Assembly: GCA_023621995.1 (NCBI GenBank)
Contig: JAMOAB010000013.1
Coordinates: 1 to 37,694 of the forward strand
Length of the DNA stretch: 37,694 nucleotides
Direction: 5' to 3'
Source: Bacillota bacterium
GTDB lineage: Bacteria; Bacillota; Clostridia; Caldicoprobacterales; Xylanivirgaceae
Shown here: piece after piece, positions 23,292 to 37,586 of the stretch
Position numbering within the stretch: the first letter of the stretch is position 1
How the letters are laid out: the number at the start of each line of letters is the position of its first letter
Program-made: the position numbers and the translations under genes
Notes under the pieces: generated by a model
What the model saw: only the letters and a program-made list of their open reading frames with translations
Told to the model about the DNA's origin: nothing
The model's database searches: none

Positions 23292-23346
23292 AATATAGGC
23301 AAAAGGAGAGCAATAACAAAGTTTTTGGAAATTGAGGAGGATTGAC

Positions 23347-25311
23347 ATGGAGAAGTTAAATATGAAATCAAAAGATATAACCAGAGAAAACATAGAAAAG
23401 ATAGGGGAACTTTTCCCTAATGTAATTACAGAGATAAGGGATGAAAAGGGAAATATAAAAAGGGCTATAGACTTTGAACTACTACAACAAGAATTGAGGG
23501 AAGGAATAGTAGAAGGTAGAAGGGAGAGATATGAGCTAACTTGGCCAGGTAAAAGGGAGGCCATAGCCATAGCCAATACTTCCATAGATAAGACGTTAAG
23601 GCCAGTGAAAGAAGATAGCTTAAACTGGGAAAATACAGAGAATCTATACATAGAAGGGGACAATCTAGAAGCTTTAAAACTTCTTCAAGAATCCTATCTA
23701 AACAAGATAAAATGCATATACATAGATCCTCCATACAATACTGGGAATGACTTTATATATAGAGACGACTTTACTCTAGACAGGAATGAATATCTAGAGA
23801 GAACAGGGCAGATAGATGATGGGGGGAATAGACTTTTCCAAAACACAGAATATAACGGTAGGTACCACAGTGATTGGTTAAGTATGATGTATCCTAGACT
23901 TAAATTGGCACGGAACCTGTTGTCAGAGGATGGTGTCATATTTATATCTATAGATGATAATGAAGTGCATAATTTGAGAAAGATATGTGATGAGATCTTT
24001 GGCGAGGCTAATTTTATAGCCAATTTTATATGGGAAAAGACCCAACACTTTGGTAGACAGAGGCTCAATACATATAGTAATTATGAGAATATATTATGTT
24101 ATGCTAAATCCCTTAGGAACTCAAACCTTAAGAGATTAATTGCTGAGAGGTCAATAATGGAGTTGGAAGATGCTCCACTATACAATGCTTCAAACAATCT
24201 AAAGACATTGGTATTTCCAAAGGGCTCAGTAAAGTTTAACATAAAAGATGGAGTATATAGTCACAGTACAAATGACAAGTATACTCTAGAAGAACCTGTA
24301 ATAGTGGAAAATGGCTATAATAAAAATGATTTAGTTTTGACATTTAGATCAAGATGGAATCAAGAGTCGGTAAATGCAGAGTATAAGAGGGGGACTACTT
24401 TTTGGGTAAAGAGTACAAACTTCGCCATTAGAACTATCTATCATAGTGAAAAAGAGTCTATAGCATCCGCAAGGGAACTGATTTTTACAAATAAAAACAA
24501 TGAGTTTGTAACCAAAAATCGGTTTGGCACACCGGTGGGAGTAAATGAAAACGGTTCATCTGAGCTAAAAGATATTATGGGAGTTACTACATTTGATTAT
24601 CCAAAGCCAACATCACTTATTAGTTACATAATATCTTTAATCTATGACCATAGGGAGAACAAATTTGATAAAGATTTTTATGTTTTAGACTTTTTCTCCG
24701 GCTCGGCTACCACCGCCCATGCAGTCATGGAGTTAAACGCACAAGATGGCGGCAATAGAAAATATATAATGGTTCAACTTCCAGAACCTATAGCTGAAAA
24801 GTCTGAGGCCTACAAGGCAGGTTATAAAAATATAGCTGAAATAGGTAAGGAGCGTATTCGTAGGGCAGCGAGAAAGATTGAGGAAGAGACTGGCGCAGAT
24901 ATAGACTATGGATTTAGAGTGTTCAAAGTAGACTCTTCTAATATGAAGGATGTATATTATAGGCCCGATGAACTGGAGCAGGATTTAATAGAACAGCTAG
25001 AAACCAACATAAAAGAAAATAGGACAGGTTTAGATCTACTTATTCAGGTAATGCTAGAGGCAGGGTTAGAGCTATCTCTACCTATTGAGACCAAGGAGAT
25101 CTGTGGCAAAGAGGTATACTTTGTAGCCGATAATTCTTTGGTCGCCTGCTTTAATGAAAATATAGATAAAACATTGATCAAAGAACTGGCAAAGACTGAG
25201 CCCTTAAAGGTCGTCTTTAGAGATAGCTCATTTAAGTCATCCTCAGATAGGATAAACCTGGAAGGGTTATTTAAAAATATATCTCCAAATACAGAGATTA
25301 AAGTTTTGTAG
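23347..25311 (+). CDS. mod: Type III Mod-like (beta-class) DNA adenine methyltransferase
   Basis: A 654-residue site-specific N6-adenine methyltransferase. The catalytic DPPYNTG motif (127-133) comes before the SAM-binding DFFSGSATTAHAV (about 446-458), the beta-class order. The variable region between them (about 200-430) is the target-recognition domain. An in-frame TTG lies at 23332, but GAGGAGG spans it and is spaced for the ATG at 23347. No cognate Res gene follows. Instead a degraded membrane gene and pdxS come next, and the helicase-protease gene that would partner it is 5.5 kb away. Its last 139 codons are repeated, diverged, at 30426-30831. It looks intact and could be an orphan methylase or part of the locus downstream. 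Confidence 0.92.
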   Translation: MEKLNMKSKDITRENIEKIGELFPNVITEIRDEKGNIKRAIDFELLQQELREGIVEGRRERYELTWPGKREAIAIANTSIDKTLRPVKEDSLNWENTENLYIEGDNLEALKLLQESYLNKIKCIYIDPPYNTGNDFIYRDDFTLDRNEYLERTGQIDDGGNRLFQNTEYNGRYHSDWLSMMYPRLKLARNLLSEDGVIFISIDDNEVHNLRKICDEIFGEANFIANFIWEKTQHFGRQRLNTYSNYENILCYAKSLRNSNLKRLIAERSIMELEDAPLYNASNNLKTLVFPKGSVKFNIKDGVYSHSTNDKYTLEEPVIVENGYNKNDLVLTFRSRWNQESVNAEYKRGTTFWVKSTNFAIRTIYHSEKESIASARELIFTNKNNEFVTKNRFGTPVGVNENGSSELKDIMGVTTFDYPKPTSLISYIISLIYDHRENKFDKDFYVLDFFSGSATTAHAVMELNAQDGGNRKYIMVQLPEPIAEKSEAYKAGYKNIAEIGKERIRRAARKIEEETGADIDYGFRVFKVDSSNMKDVYYRPDELEQDLIEQLETNIKENRTGLDLLIQVMLEAGLELSLPIETKEICGKEVYFVADNSLVACFNENIDKTLIKELAKTEPLKVVFRDSSFKSSSDRINLEGLFKNISPNTEIKVL

Positions 25312-27971: not shown

Positions 27972-28137
27972 GCAATTGCAGATGCTCTTTAATAGACGAG
28001 CAGAATAATTTGGGATATAATGTATCTATAGGAATGTTATAAACATTCAAGTTCTGCACTTGAATATTCTTAATGATAACTTTATTAATTTATTTTTGAT
28101 TTTGCTAGTAGCTATTCATATTATAGGAAGGGATAAA

Positions 28138-29064
28138 ATGAAAATATACGTTGGAGTTACGGATAATAATTGGTTTAAATATTTAGCATCTATAGCCCCT
28201 AATGAAGTCAACTTTTGGCGTCCGGGGGATAGAACTCGGTTTAGAGCTTTAGAACCTAATGATTTATTTCTTTTTAAACTTCACAGTCCACTTAATTACA
28301 TTGTAGGTGGTGGCTTTTTTGTAAAGCATTCATTTTTACCTGTGTCCCTTGCTTGGGAGACCTTTGGCAACAAAAATGGTGCAATAGATTATGATACATT
28401 TGCTAACTCTATATACAAGTACCGTAAAACCAATAGAAGAAATGAACCTGATCCAGTAATAGGCTGTATAATTCTAACATCACCTTTCTTTTTTCCTAGA
28501 GAGCATTGGATACCTGTCCCGGAAGACTGGAAACCCAATATTGTTCAAGGAAAAACATATGATACAAGTGACTTTATAGGGAGAAAACTGTACAAAGATG
28601 TAGTGCAAAGAATGCAGTTAGGTGAAAATATGCAAGAACAACCTTCAATGTATAAGACAGAAAGGTTTGGCAGAGAAACTTTGATAAAACCACGGCTAGG
28701 GCAGGGTGCTTTTAGGGTAATGGTCACAGATGCATATCACAGAAGATGTGCAATAACAGGTGAAAAGACATTACCTGCTTTAGATGCTACCCATATAAAA
28801 CCTTATTCTATGAATGGTCCACATATGACAAACAATGGTCTTCTTCTAAGAAAAGATTTGCATGCACTATATGACAGAGGCTATATTACAATCACTGAGG
28901 ACAATCATATAGAAGTAAGTAAGAGAATAAAAGAAGATTACGGGAATGGAAGAGAATATTATGCTATGCATGGACAAGAATTATCTATACTACCTGATAA
29001 TGCAAAAGATAGACCTAAGAAGGAATTTATAAGATGGCATAATGAAAAAATATATTTAGGATAG
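28138..29064 (+). CDS. HNH endonuclease with N-terminal recognition-like domain (possible type IV restriction enzyme)
   Basis: A 308-residue protein. Residues 1-95 form a small beta-rich domain (MKIYVGVTDNNWFKYL, LEPNDLFLFKLHSP, IVGGGFFV) that resembles EVE/PUA-like modified-base readers. The C-terminal part is an HNH nuclease: CAITGEK near 203, ATHIKPYS with the first His near 219, NNGLLL, then DLHALYDRG. AGGAAGGGA lies before the ATG at 28138; an in-frame ATG 78 nt upstream would add a hydrophobic stretch and has no ribosome site. It stands alone beside the Mod/helicase locus. Restriction of modified DNA is an inference from architecture and neighbours. The HNH call is firm. Confidence 0.82.
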   Translation: MKIYVGVTDNNWFKYLASIAPNEVNFWRPGDRTRFRALEPNDLFLFKLHSPLNYIVGGGFFVKHSFLPVSLAWETFGNKNGAIDYDTFANSIYKYRKTNRRNEPDPVIGCIILTSPFFFPREHWIPVPEDWKPNIVQGKTYDTSDFIGRKLYKDVVQRMQLGENMQEQPSMYKTERFGRETLIKPRLGQGAFRVMVTDAYHRRCAITGEKTLPALDATHIKPYSMNGPHMTNNGLLLRKDLHALYDRGYITITEDNHIEVSKRIKEDYGNGREYYAMHGQELSILPDNAKDRPKKEFIRWHNEKIYLG

Positions 29065-29205: not shown

Positions 29206-30425
<1,220 letters not shown>

Positions 30426-30831
30426 GCAGATATAGACTATGGATTTAAGGTATATAAGGTAGATTCTCCTAATATGAAGGATGTAAATTATAGGCCTGAT
30501 GAAATAGAACAGGACTTAATAGAACAGCTAGAGTCCAATATGAAAGAAAACATAACGGAATTAGATCTACTTACTCAGGTAATGTTAGAAGCAGGACTGG
30601 AATTATCCTTGGCAATTGAGAGCAAGGAGATTTATGGTAAAGAGGTACACTTTGTAGCTGATAATTCTCTAGTTGCCTGTTTTAATGAAAATGTAGATGA
30701 AGAATTGATAAAAAAACTATCTAAGTATGAACCTTTAAAGGTAATCTTTAGAGATAGCTCATCCCGATAGGATAAATTTAGAAGAGATATTTAAGAGTAT
30801 ATATCCTAGTACAGAGATTAAGGTTCTATAA
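30426..30831 (+). pseudogene. C-terminal third of a second Mod methyltransferase gene
   Basis: Homologous throughout to the end of the intact mod gene (24895-25311). It begins ADIDYGFKVYKVDSPNMKDV and ends TEIKVL at TAA 30829-30831. A small deletion near 30763, in the serine-rich stretch, shifts the frame before DRINLEEIF. It is bounded on the left by the IS30 remnant and lies 11 bp before the helicase-protease gene. This gives the ancestral order mod then helicase-protease. Many differences from the intact copy show it is an old or separately acquired paralogue rather than a fresh duplication. Confidence 0.85.
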
Positions 30832-30842
30832 GAGGTGATTAG

Positions 30843-33437
30843 ATGAAGATTAAATTTAAGGAACAACAATTTCAAATAGATGCAGTTCAATCTGTAGTTG
30901 ACTGCTTTAGGGGGCAGGTAAATAAATCTTCTAGATTTACTTTGGATAGAGGTAGGGCAAAGGGCGAAATAGGAGGACAGAGAAGCTTTTTGATTGCAGA
31001 GGGGTTTAAGAATAAGCCAATAACAGGGATATCGGATGCTGATATACTTAAAAATATTAGAGAGGTACAACTTAGAAATGGACTTAAGCCATCAGATAAA
31101 TTAGAGGGGAAATACAATCTAACTATAGAGATGGAGACAGGGGCAGGTAAAACTACAGTTGCAGCCCATTGGCTTATAAGAAAATACATACATGAAGGTT
31201 ATAGAGTACTTTGGTTGTCTCATAGGGTAGAATTATTGGAACAAGCCTTTGATACTTTTAATTACTTTTCTTATCTAATCCAAGGCGAAGATTCATATAT
31301 GAATATGATTATAGTTTCAGGTAAATATAATAGTTGGAGCTCTGTAGATAATAGATATAATGTTGTTTTCTCTACAGATAGAAGTACTGCGTTAAATTTA
31401 AACTATTTAGAGCTAATGATGAGTCAATCAGATAAAGGTATATTCGCTGTTATTGATGAAGCTCATCATACTGTTGCTAGCCAATATCGTAGCATATTAA
31501 ACACTATGTTTTCTAATAAAGGGGAAAAAGACATAAAACTATTAGGACTTACTGCTACACCTGTAAGAATGAATCCAGATGAAACCCAGTTACTTTGGAG
31601 AATTTATGATGACAATTTTGATATAATAAAACCTAGCAAGAAAACTCAAGCCTCAGAATATAACAGTATAATATATGAAGTATCACAAAATCAATTAATA
31701 CAAGAAAATATACTATCAAAGCCTCATCCCAGTACAGTAAATACAAAAATAGATTTTGAAGCAGAATTTACAGAAGATGACTACAAATATTTAGAACAAT
31801 TTGGAGATTTAGGACAAGATGTCTTAAATAAAATAACGAATAGCAGCTTGAGAAACAAAATAATAGTACAACATTACAAAGAAAACATAAAAAAATATGG
31901 GAAAACCTTAGTATTTGCAATAGATATAGCCCATTGCATAACATTAAATGAAGAATTTCGAAAACAGGGAATAGAAAGTGATTTTGTTGCATATACAGAG
32001 GGAAATAATGCCGAAGTTATAGAAAATTTTAAAAGCACTGATGAACCACAAGTAATTATAAGTGTTATTAAGCTAACAGAAGGATTTGATGCACCTAATA
32101 TTCAGACGGTTTTCTTGACAAGTCCTACTCGTTCAGAACCTCTACTTAGACAGATGATAGGTAGAGGACTTAGAGGGCCAAAGGCAGGAGGAACAGAAGA
32201 TGCTTATTTGGTTACCTTTGTAGATACTTGGAAATTATTTAAACCATTAGATCCTGGATATATTCTAGATGTGGAGAAAGTTATAGAAGATCCTAAACCT
32301 GAACCTAAACCTAGTGGGGTTCCAATACTTATACCAATGGATGAGTTTGAAAAAATTGTAAAAGCTGCCTATGAACTATTATTAACAAAACCTATTTCCT
32401 ATGATTTTACTATATTTGAAACCTTCCCACATTCATGGTATCAATGGACTAGAGAAGAAGAAGGGGAAGAAAGAGAAGATTTAGTATTTATTTTTGAAAA
32501 TCAATATGAATTTTATAAAGACTTTATAGAGTATTATCAAAAGAACAAGAAGGAAATCCCTGAAATATTAAATGAAGAAACTATAGGAGAAATGCTATAT
32601 AAATTCTTTGACGATTGTAGCGATCCCCTACCAGATTATAATGATATTATTAAATTAGCTGGAGCCATTAGACGAGGAGAAAGGATTAATCATTTTACAT
32701 TTAAAGAAAAAGAAAAAATTGATCCAGCTACATTAGCATGGAAGTATATAGATTTAGGTCCATTAGAACTAAAGCCTAAGCTTAGAGAAATATATGATGA
32801 TAACAAACTTTGCAGAATCATATATAAAAATATATTTGAAAATTTTTTAGAAGATGTGATGAAAGAATGGATTAAAATAACTACAACAGGCAAGACCATA
32901 TCCAAGGAGACTGAAAAAGATAAAATTGAAGAAGGTAAGGAAGAAAAAGTTATAGATTTACCCATTTTACCCCAATACCCAGAAGGTGCAGGCTACGATT
33001 TAGATGAAATAATGGAATCTGTAATATACACAGATAAAAATTTCTTAAATAAAGTACATTTTCCAAATGGAGAACCGCCAAAATATAGAATATCCTTTAC
33101 TTCAAAAACACGAAAAACTTATTTTGGCATATGCAGATATAGTGATAAGACTATTAAAATTAATAGAGCATTGAATTCACCTAAGTTACCTAGATTTGTA
33201 ATGGAGTTTTTAGTATATCATGAAGTATTACATGCAGATATGCCAAACAATGGCCATGATAAGCTTTTTAGGGAAAGAGAAAGAAAATTTATACCATCTA
33301 AAATAGCTGAAAAAGAAGCAAAGGAATTTGAAGATGGATATGAATATGATACCAATGTATCCTATTATTGGTATACAGTAAGTAATCAATTTTTAGATAC
33401 AATTCATTGGGATTACAAGATTGATGCAGTGAAGTAG
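30843..33437 (+). CDS. SF2 helicase fused to a C-terminal HExxH (SprT-like) metallopeptidase
   Basis: An 864-residue protein. A superfamily-2 helicase domain has Walker A METGAGKT (K103), DEAH box VIDEAHH (205-210), GLTATPVR (235-242) and motif VI RQMIGRGLRGP. A charged linker covers about 490-720. The last 120 residues carry VYHEVLHADM with H793, E794 and H797, then NNGHDKLF with a possible third ligand, as in SprT/M48-type zinc peptidases. AGAGGTG precedes the ATG at 30843. Type III Res proteins end in a PD-(D/E)xK nuclease; none is visible here. It follows a broken mod and precedes the DUF499 ATPase gene, so it is probably the ATP-driven component of a defence system that may cleave protein rather than DNA. 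Confidence 0.88.
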   Translation: MKIKFKEQQFQIDAVQSVVDCFRGQVNKSSRFTLDRGRAKGEIGGQRSFLIAEGFKNKPITGISDADILKNIREVQLRNGLKPSDKLEGKYNLTIEMETGAGKTTVAAHWLIRKYIHEGYRVLWLSHRVELLEQAFDTFNYFSYLIQGEDSYMNMIIVSGKYNSWSSVDNRYNVVFSTDRSTALNLNYLELMMSQSDKGIFAVIDEAHHTVASQYRSILNTMFSNKGEKDIKLLGLTATPVRMNPDETQLLWRIYDDNFDIIKPSKKTQASEYNSIIYEVSQNQLIQENILSKPHPSTVNTKIDFEAEFTEDDYKYLEQFGDLGQDVLNKITNSSLRNKIIVQHYKENIKKYGKTLVFAIDIAHCITLNEEFRKQGIESDFVAYTEGNNAEVIENFKSTDEPQVIISVIKLTEGFDAPNIQTVFLTSPTRSEPLLRQMIGRGLRGPKAGGTEDAYLVTFVDTWKLFKPLDPGYILDVEKVIEDPKPEPKPSGVPILIPMDEFEKIVKAAYELLLTKPISYDFTIFETFPHSWYQWTREEEGEEREDLVFIFENQYEFYKDFIEYYQKNKKEIPEILNEETIGEMLYKFFDDCSDPLPDYNDIIKLAGAIRRGERINHFTFKEKEKIDPATLAWKYIDLGPLELKPKLREIYDDNKLCRIIYKNIFENFLEDVMKEWIKITTTGKTISKETEKDKIEEGKEEKVIDLPILPQYPEGAGYDLDEIMESVIYTDKNFLNKVHFPNGEPPKYRISFTSKTRKTYFGICRYSDKTIKINRALNSPKLPRFVMEFLVYHEVLHADMPNNGHDKLFRERERKFIPSKIAEKEAKEFEDGYEYDTNVSYYWYTVSNQFLDTIHWDYKIDAVK

Positions 33438-36910: not shown

Positions 36911-37586
36911 AAAGACTGTAGAACTATTAAGAGATGAGAAATGGCTAGAGAGAGGAACCATTATTTTTTCACAATATTATGATACTGCAAGATGGATTGC
37001 CCAAAACCTATCTTTAGAATTTCCAGAAGAAACCATAGGTATATATGCGGGAGGAACAAAATCTGGCATATTTAAAAATGGCGAATTTACCTACAAAGAT
37101 AAAGAAACTATTAAAGCCCAGGTAAAAGATAGAGATATTAGAGTTTTAATAGGCACCGATGCAGCTAGTGAAGGATTAAACTTGCAAACTCTAGGCTCAT
37201 TAATAAATATAGACTTACCTTGGAATCCAACTAGATTAGAACAGAGAAAAGGTAGAATCCAAAGAATTGGACAGGAATACGATACCATTTATATTTACAA
37301 TATGAGATACAAAGATTCTATAGAAGACAAGGTCCATAAAAGATTATCAGAACGATTAAAACATATTTCAGATGTATTTGGACAAGTACCAGATACACTA
37401 GAAGATGTTTGGATAAAAATTGCACTAGGTGAGGAAGAAGAAGCATTGAAATTAATAGATGAAGTACCTGACACCCATCCTTTTGAAAATAGATATAATA
37501 AAGAGGTAAAACATATAGATTGGGAAAGCTGTTCTAAGGTATTGGACAATGGGGAGAAGAGGAGAGTTTTGAAGAAGGGGTGGTAG
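36894..37586 (+). pseudogene. C-terminal fragment of an SNF2-type helicase
   Basis: The frame opens right after TAG 36891-36893 and reads EYPKYEKTVELLRDEKWLE, then GTIIFSQYYDTARWIA. The helicase C-terminal motifs follow: VLIGTDAASEGLNLQ (motif V) and NPTRLEQRKGRIQRIGQ (motif VI). It ends at TAG 37584-37586. About two thirds of the usual protein, including motifs I-III, is missing. It shares about 17 bp with the DUF499 gene end in a different frame, so a deletion has joined the two. A short internal start at 37182 could give only the last 134 residues. Confidence 0.85.

What the first reader, a model, noticed from the sequence alone, without database searches (positions are those of the whole stretch)
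30843..33437. SF2 helicase with C-terminal zinc peptidase instead of a nuclease
The helicase motifs are complete, and the only other catalytic signature is HEVLH with a downstream His in the last 75 residues. A DNA-translocating motor carrying a SprT-like protease would be expected to clear or cleave DNA-bound proteins, an unusual effector for a Mod-linked system. One attractive idea is cleavage of phage DNA-binding proteins on unmethylated DNA.
Basis: partly seen in the sequence, partly recalled or inferred. Interest (0 to 1): 0.68.

Follow-up and report, generated by a model that had tools for sequence, protein, structure and literature searches.

The report
Chimeric helicase carrying a zinc peptidase
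This gene encodes a DNA-motor protein that ends in a protein-cutting zinc enzyme where sister proteins carry a DNA-cutting one, but this copy is a fusion: its first 100 codons come from a different, broken restriction gene, joined at the spot where a mobile element's recombinase cuts.

Summary
The 864-aa ORF has complete SF2 motifs, HEVLH with a third His, and no nuclease found. The isolated C-terminal domain is predicted to be a SPRTN/minigluzincin-like zinc peptidase (abylysin Z 11.9, SPRTN Z 8.4). The zinc ligands are invariant in 13 of 13 relatives.

Two things change the reading.

(1) It is a real but uncatalogued family. Relatives in Clostridia, another class of the phylum and a mobile-element contig share the RadD-like helicase, middle domain and SprT end. 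A sister branch has an HNH nuclease at that position. A conserved partner gene (no Pfam family) sits next to 6 SprT loci and 1 HNH locus.

(2) The window copy is a chimera. Codons 1-100 are the start of a type III res gene. The switch lies inside Walker A, at the GG where an ICE's serine recombinases cut this res gene in two other species and in the window's own genome (rest of res on contig C50). 'Mod-linked' and 'DUF499-linked' are therefore accidental: flanking remnants are broken, the intact mod is an orphan.

Best mechanism: a DNA-tracking protease that cleaves DNA-bound proteins, more likely in defence than in repair. Activity is untested; this copy may be inactive.

The parts
30843..33437 (+). 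chimeric ORF, 864 aa: type III Res N-terminus fused to SprT-helicase
30843..31141 (+). codons 1-100, derived from a Mod-linked type III res gene (31-40 of residues 1-50 identical to intact Res proteins)
31140..31141 (.). junction: GG inside the Walker A codons (ATGGAGACA-GG-GGCAGGTAAAAC), the same GG at which an ICE splits this res gene in L007, L010 and, on the other side, in the window's own genome (C50) and G307 (C6)
31142..33434 (+). SprT-helicase part: RecA1 from the P-loop on, RecA2, middle domain, SprT domain
   Evidence: 34% identical to L034 over residues 84-816; RadD fold Z 24.9
31137..31154 (+). motif I TGAGKT, K103
31455..31466 (+). motif II DEAH, residues 205-208
32151..32174 (+). 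motif VI QMIGRGLR, residues 437-444
32340..32912 (+). middle domain, residues 500-690, shared by the SprT and HNH members; no Pfam family
32997..33434 (+). SprT / minigluzincin-like zinc peptidase domain, residues 719-864
33219..33233 (+). HEVLH, residues 793-797
   Evidence: invariant H, E, H in 13 of 13 members
33255..33257 (+). third zinc ligand H805
   Evidence: invariant
30426..30828 (+). frameshifted 3' remnant of the mod gene that paired with this res (75% identical to L010 mod)
29206..30231 (+). frameshifted remnant of the large helicase gene that stands upstream of mod-res in L010
34028..36910 (+). DUF499 ATPase with Fn3-like domain (NF042962 760 bits, cut-off 1200); neighbour, not part of the SprT-helicase module
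36951..37586 (+). C-terminal fragment of the PLD-helicase (NF042964 positions 761-895 at 37182-37583)

Best explanation
Shown from sequence: the ORF is an in-frame fusion of the start of a type III res gene (codons 1-100) with a member of a SprT-helicase family, which is a RadD-like SF2 translocase with a middle domain and a C-terminal SPRTN/minigluzincin-like zinc peptidase. The junction lies at the GG inside Walker A where the serine recombinases of a conjugative element cut this res gene, and the other half of the cut gene is on contig C50 next to such a recombinase gene. Inferred, how it arose: two copies of the element sat in two P-loop genes (res and the SprT-helicase), and recombination between the left end of one and the right end of the other removed element DNA and joined res-left to helicase-right. 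Inferred, how it works: the motor moves along DNA and the tethered peptidase cuts proteins bound or crosslinked to that DNA. Because the same chassis exists with an HNH nuclease, has an optional partner protein in common, is patchily distributed and rides mobile elements and some defence islands, I think a restriction-like role against invading DNA (attack on the proteins bound to it) is likelier than housekeeping repair. In the window copy the Res segment supplies the helix and strand that precede the P-loop, so the fold is complete in the model, but whether this copy works is unknown.
For: Chimera: residues 1-50 are 31-40 of 50 identical to intact Res proteins, residues 105-150 only 8-11 of 37-41. 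DNA similarity runs from the mod remnant to the P-loop and ends. L034 is the same protein with its own N-terminus. Recombinase: res is split at the same GG in L007 and L010. The missing res half (residues 97-1012, 79%) is on own contig C50, preceded by a serine recombinase gene (C50 2110-3594; PF00239, PF07508) and the element end GACACGATAG; G307 has three tandem recombinases there. The same element end is in two more genes of L010's genome, one at MPTG and one at motif I DPAC-G of an N6-methylase, so one genome can hold several copies. PMC4701971 reports triplet-serine-integrase ICEs inserting in hsdM, traG and mutT. Peptidase: abylysin Z 11.9 (rmsd 2.1, 102 aligned), SPRTN 6mdx Z 8.4 (3.4, 107), Wss1 Z 6.7; PDB profile hits to selecase and projannalysin; invariant active site. 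Motor: RadD Z 24.9 (rmsd 4.1, 345 aligned). Effector swap: HNH in L103-L106 and the Deinococcus plasmid proteins. Mobile or defence context: L093 with a serine recombinase, L067 beside DUF262-like and HNH genes, L100 beside Hma, L039 beside CRISPR type III-like genes.
Against: The element's other arm was not found in the window's genome, so the two-insertion route is not demonstrated; a 175-contig MAG can lack it. The P-loop is also where two helicase genes share sequence, so homology-driven exchange at that spot is conceivable. No reads are available to rule out a misjoin, although the sides share only a few bases at the junction. Defence is not shown: several relatives sit beside what look like housekeeping genes (L097, L098), RadD and SPRTN are repair proteins, and no PADLOC or NCBIfam model names this family. 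No activity was measured. The upstream genes of the window copy are decayed, so its expression is uncertain.
Confidence: 0.6

Rival explanations
1. Repair, not defence: the SprT-helicase is a bacterial DNA-protein-crosslink repair enzyme, a RadD-like motor delivering a SPRTN-like protease to blocked DNA.
For: Closest folds are RadD and, among proteases, SPRTN and Wss1 besides the minigluzincins; some loci lie among housekeeping-like genes.
Against: Patchy distribution: of the class sample of 291 genomes only G119, besides the window's own, showed a strong helicase-containing relative; only the window's own genome of 30 in its order has one. Mobile-element carriage, HNH nuclease in the sister branch, and a partner whose homologues are fused to HNH or NOV_C nuclease-type domains.
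Confidence: 0.25
2. The window copy is a dead by-product: an accidental fusion in a decayed defence island with no function of its own.
For: Upstream mod and helicase remnants are frameshifted, the downstream PLD-helicase is truncated, the partner gene is absent from the genome.
Against: 864 codons open, start codon and upstream AGAGGTG intact, active-site residues intact, predicted fold of the fused RecA1 domain formed (helix 65-78, strand 92-97). An intact frame also fits a recent event.
Confidence: 0.4
3. Assembly artefact: the metagenome assembler joined two unrelated genes at the P-loop.
For: MAG with 175 contigs and 4% contamination; P-loop sequences are conserved.
Against: By inference Res and SprT-helicase share only about 5-7 bases at the junction, too few for an assembly overlap; the join is in frame and exactly at a recombinase crossover seen independently in other genomes.
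Confidence: 0.07
4. The SprT-like domain is not a protease but a metal-dependent RNase of the YbeY type or a non-catalytic zinc module.
For: YbeY appears among structural matches (Z 6.6); Pfam SprT-like is below its cut-off.
Against: Much better matches to proteases (Z 10-12), and the general-base Glu of HExxH is invariant.
Confidence: 0.08

Closest known systems
SPRTN / Wss1 DNA-protein-crosslink proteases and minigluzincins (abylysin, jannalysin, selecase)
   Same: zincin fold, HExxH plus third His, compact catalytic domain
   Different: here fused to an SF2 motor and middle domain; HExxH-x7-H in the window, mostly x5 to x6 in relatives; weak sequence similarity
RadD (YejH) helicase
   Same: two-RecA core, best structural match (Z 24.9)
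   Different: 93 bits against a NCBIfam cut-off of 720; adds a middle domain and an SprT or HNH C-terminus
HNH-ended sister helicases (L103-L106, Deinococcus WP_027479745)
   Same: same helicase and middle domain; one (L105) has the same partner gene
   Different: nuclease instead of peptidase at the C-terminus; separate branch of the tree with weak support (78/85)
Type III restriction Res subunit
   Same: codons 1-100 of the window ORF
   Different: everything after the P-loop is replaced
BREX-related (BR) type 2, DUF499-centred systems (PMC12839542)
   Same: a DUF499 ATPase with Fn3-like domain and a PLD-helicase fragment lie downstream
   Different: no DUF3780 or DUF1156 gene identified in the proteins scanned; the SprT-helicase is not a component in the genomes tested
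ICEs with three serine integrases inserting in hsdM, traG, mutT (PMC4701971)
   Same: three tandem serine recombinases (G307), very short shared core, disruption of restriction genes
   Different: target here is the Walker A codons of res, a target not mentioned in the passages read

Membership tests
SPRTN/minigluzincin-like zinc peptidase | HExxH with a third His ligand | tested here: met
   H793, E794, H797, H805 invariant in 13 of 13
SPRTN/minigluzincin-like zinc peptidase | zincin fold | tested here: met
   AF2 pLDDT 83, pTM 0.82; Z 11.9 to 4jiu, 8.4 to 6mdx; a predicted, not solved, structure
Pfam SprT-like PF10263 | curated cut-off reached | tested here: not met
   23.0 bits against 25.6; similarity claimed, not Pfam membership
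SPRTN/minigluzincin-like zinc peptidase | proteolytic activity | not testable with these tools
   needs purified protein
RadD equivalog | NCBIfam NF053632 cut-off of 720 bits | tested here: not met
   93.5 bits; RadD-like fold only
Type III Res subunit | full-length Res similarity including the C-terminal half | tested here: not met
   similarity ends in the P-loop; the rest of res is on C50
Type III Res subunit | partner Mod gene intact and adjacent | tested here: not met
   adjacent mod is a frameshifted remnant
DUF499-centred (BR type 2) system | SprT-helicase co-occurs with the NF042962 DUF499 ATPase | tested here: not met
   absent in G119, G453, G657, G587; an Hma-type DUF499 relative lies beside L100
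Triplet-serine-integrase ICE insertion | serine recombinase genes next to the split target gene | tested here: met
   C50 1452-3594 (two ORFs, one short), G307 C6 (three)
Triplet-serine-integrase ICE insertion | other element arm present in the window's genome | tested here: inconclusive
   not found; the genome is a draft
Helicase-effector restriction (type IV-like) | separate or fused recognition domain | tested here: inconclusive
   partner gene next to the helicase in L034, L093, L096, L097, L099, L101, L105, absent from the window genome; function only inferred

The most novel reading that the evidence does not exclude
A restriction-like two-gene module in which a DNA translocase attacks the proteins on invading DNA with a zinc peptidase, interchangeable with an HNH nuclease on the same chassis and guided by a small separate recognition protein; and the P-loop-targeting recombinases of conjugative elements both knock out defence ATPases and create new in-frame helicase chimeras, of which the window gene is an example.
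Probability: 0.3. Interest if true: 0.82.

Novelty: new variant of a known kind. Interest (0 to 1): 0.6.

Why it matters
If the SprT-helicases protect cells, they would be a motor-driven defence whose warhead is a protease acting on DNA-bound proteins, with nuclease-armed sisters as a built-in control, so the effector swap can be tested directly. If they act in repair, they would be bacterial counterparts of SPRTN joined to their own motor. The junction shows how an element that inserts into Walker A codons can disarm restriction genes and leave in-frame hybrid helicases, a route to new domain combinations. It also warns that linkage to mod or DUF499 at this locus is not evidence of a joint system.

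Tried and rejected
Mod-linked or DUF499-linked system: rejected by broken neighbours and absence in relatives. Hidden nuclease in residues 490-720: no Pfam hit and no invariant acidic or basic cluster, though this region was not folded alone. SprT-helicase as the element's own end: rejected because the conserved left arm (GGAACGTGT...) is not at the window junction. Left arm searched in the own genome by pattern and by DNA: nothing. Identity of the second P-loop target in L074: no informative family hit, no plasmid match. Virus-collection searches with the window or L034 proteins: nothing; with the SprT alignment: one locus, L093. No close relative of the SprT-helicase in the window's order. 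Papers: none of the searches turned up a helicase-SprT defence or repair protein.

Full report
OBSERVATION. The ORF at 30843-33437 (+) is 864 aa. All SF2 motifs are present, with K103 in motif I, and HEVLH at 793-797 is followed by H805. Pfam gives ResIII and Helicase_C; the last 165 residues match SprT-like and YgjP-like profiles just below the curated cut-offs.

PEPTIDASE DOMAIN. Thirteen related proteins, the window's included, were aligned. H793, E794, H797, H805 and E813 are invariant. The domain folded alone (pLDDT 83, pTM 0.82) matches abylysin (Z 11.9, rmsd 2.1, 102 aligned), jannalysin and selecase (Z 10-11), SPRTN (6mdx, Z 8.4, rmsd 3.4, 107 aligned) and Wss1 (Z 6.7). A profile search of PDB sequences gives selecase (1.7e-4) and projannalysin (9e-4). 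YbeY, a metallo-RNase, appears at Z 6.6, so an RNase is a minor rival.

MOTOR. The full-length model (pLDDT 71.5) matches RadD best (7r7j, Z 24.9, rmsd 4.1, 345 aligned, model 58-476). It is RadD-like, not RadD (93.5 bits against a cut-off of 720).

CHIMERA. Searching with the whole protein returned hits that stop at residue 100-167. These are the N-termini of intact 1012-1014 aa Res proteins of type III systems (L002, L003, L005, L006, L008). Residues 1-50 are 31-40 of 50 identical to them; residues 105-150 only 8-11 of 37-41. DNA similarity runs from the mod remnant into the P-loop and stops. In contrast, L034 is 34% identical over residues 84-816 and has its own, different N-terminus ahead of MPTGSGKT. 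The switch lies in the codons of Walker A, at GG 31140-31141.

WHO MADE THE CUT. In Tissierella creatinophila (L007) and Clostridium ultunense (L010) the same res gene is interrupted at the same GG by DNA beginning GGAACGTGT; in L007 conjugation genes follow (RepA_N, TraG-like, TrbL). The rest of res is found in T. creatinophila on another contig and in the window's own genome on C50 (residues 97-1012, 79% identical), each directly after serine recombinase genes and the element end GACACGATAG. In C. ultunense the same left end also lies in a second MPTG gene and in the motif I codons of an N6-methylase. PMC4701971 describes ICEs with three serine integrases inserting in hsdM, traG and mutT with 2-8 bp repeats. 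The arms give attP GACACGATAG-GG-GGAACGTGTC and attB ATGGAGACA-GG-TACAGGGAAGACT (my reading). The window reads ATGGAGACA-GG-GGCAGGTAAAACT, that is res-left joined to a different P-loop right half. The simplest route is recombination between two inserted copies; this step is inferred, since the expected hybrid on the other side was not found in the draft genome.

SURROUNDINGS. Upstream of the ORF are frameshifted remnants of a large helicase gene and of mod. The intact mod at 23332-25311 has no intact res of this family in the genome. Downstream is a DUF499 ATPase with an Fn3-like domain, resembling type 2 of the BREX-related systems of PMC12839542, followed by only the C-terminal part of its PLD-helicase. 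DUF499 is absent from four other SprT-helicase genomes tested with its model.

THE FAMILY. SprT-helicases with their own N-termini occur in G119, G453 and eight genomes of the class of G657, plus a broken copy in G587 and a helicase-less variant in G657. They are absent from most genomes in the samples: only the window's own genome in its order of 30, and in the class sample of 291 only G119 besides it among strong, helicase-containing hits. A sister branch carries an HNH domain after the same middle domain (L103-L106 and Deinococcus plasmids); the separation in the tree is weakly supported (78/85). A 200-380 aa partner with no Pfam family adjoins the helicase in L034 (a partial match), L093, L096, L097, L099, L101 (SprT) and L105 (HNH); in L093 its stop overlaps the helicase start. 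Plasmid homologues of the partner are fused to HNH or NOV_C nuclease-type domains, one beside dcm, vsr and MvaI-type genes, which suggests, but does not show, a recognition role. Contexts: L093 has a serine recombinase, L067 DUF262-like and HNH neighbours, L100 an Hma system, L039 CRISPR type III-like genes (some of these read from the sequences by eye), while L097 and L098 sit among housekeeping-like genes.

MECHANISM. I commit to a DNA-tracking protease, more likely defence than repair (roughly 0.45 against 0.25, the rest open). Shown: architecture, conserved active site, effector swap, mobility. Inferred: translocation, proteolysis, target. The window copy may be dead, because its neighbours are, although its frame and predicted fold are intact.

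NOVELTY. None of the library models used (Pfam, NCBIfam, PADLOC) covers the full architecture, and none of the paper searches found it described. Each part is of a known kind, so I call it a new variant of a known kind. The paper library holds open-licence papers only, so prior description elsewhere cannot be excluded.

Noticed in passing
L007 10297, L010 10297, L074 1500, L075 1500: One ICE family inserts at ACAGG / DPAC-GG codons of P-loop or motif I genes (res, an unidentified MPTG gene, an N6-methylase), so its arrival disables restriction-type genes.
   Followed up: partly
L093 5146-5772, L096 7417-8082, L097 10844-11524, L099 2817-3917, L101 7767-8912, L105 11559-12182: Conserved partner protein with no Pfam family next to SprT- and HNH-helicases; plasmid homologues fused to HNH or NOV_C domains.
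   Followed up: partly
L103-L107, L050, L051: Sister helicases with the same middle domain but an HNH-type nuclease at the C-terminus, including Deinococcus radiodurans WP_027479745.
   Followed up: partly
L068 7896-9134: A 413-aa variant with N-terminal, middle and SprT domains but the helicase missing, as if deleted in frame.
   Followed up: no
L058, L059: 400-412 aa proteins that start with an SprT-like domain (YHESLHQDFADHDRKF), different architecture, function unknown.
   Followed up: no
window 23332-25311: Intact orphan type III mod gene 61% identical to L010 mod, with no intact res of this family in the genome.
   Followed up: partly
window 28060-29064: HNH protein related to phosphorothioate-DNA-binding restriction endonucleases (NF045808, 74.8 bits, cut-off 180).
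   Followed up: no
L100 5944-17558: SprT-helicase gene convergent with an Hma-type system (HmaC-like DUF499 ATPase, DUF1156 methylase, helicase with NOV_C).
   Followed up: partly
L052 440-2117 (own contig C50): Transposase-like ORFs lie next to the short second recombinase ORF of the element, so the element looks decayed in this genome.
   Followed up: no
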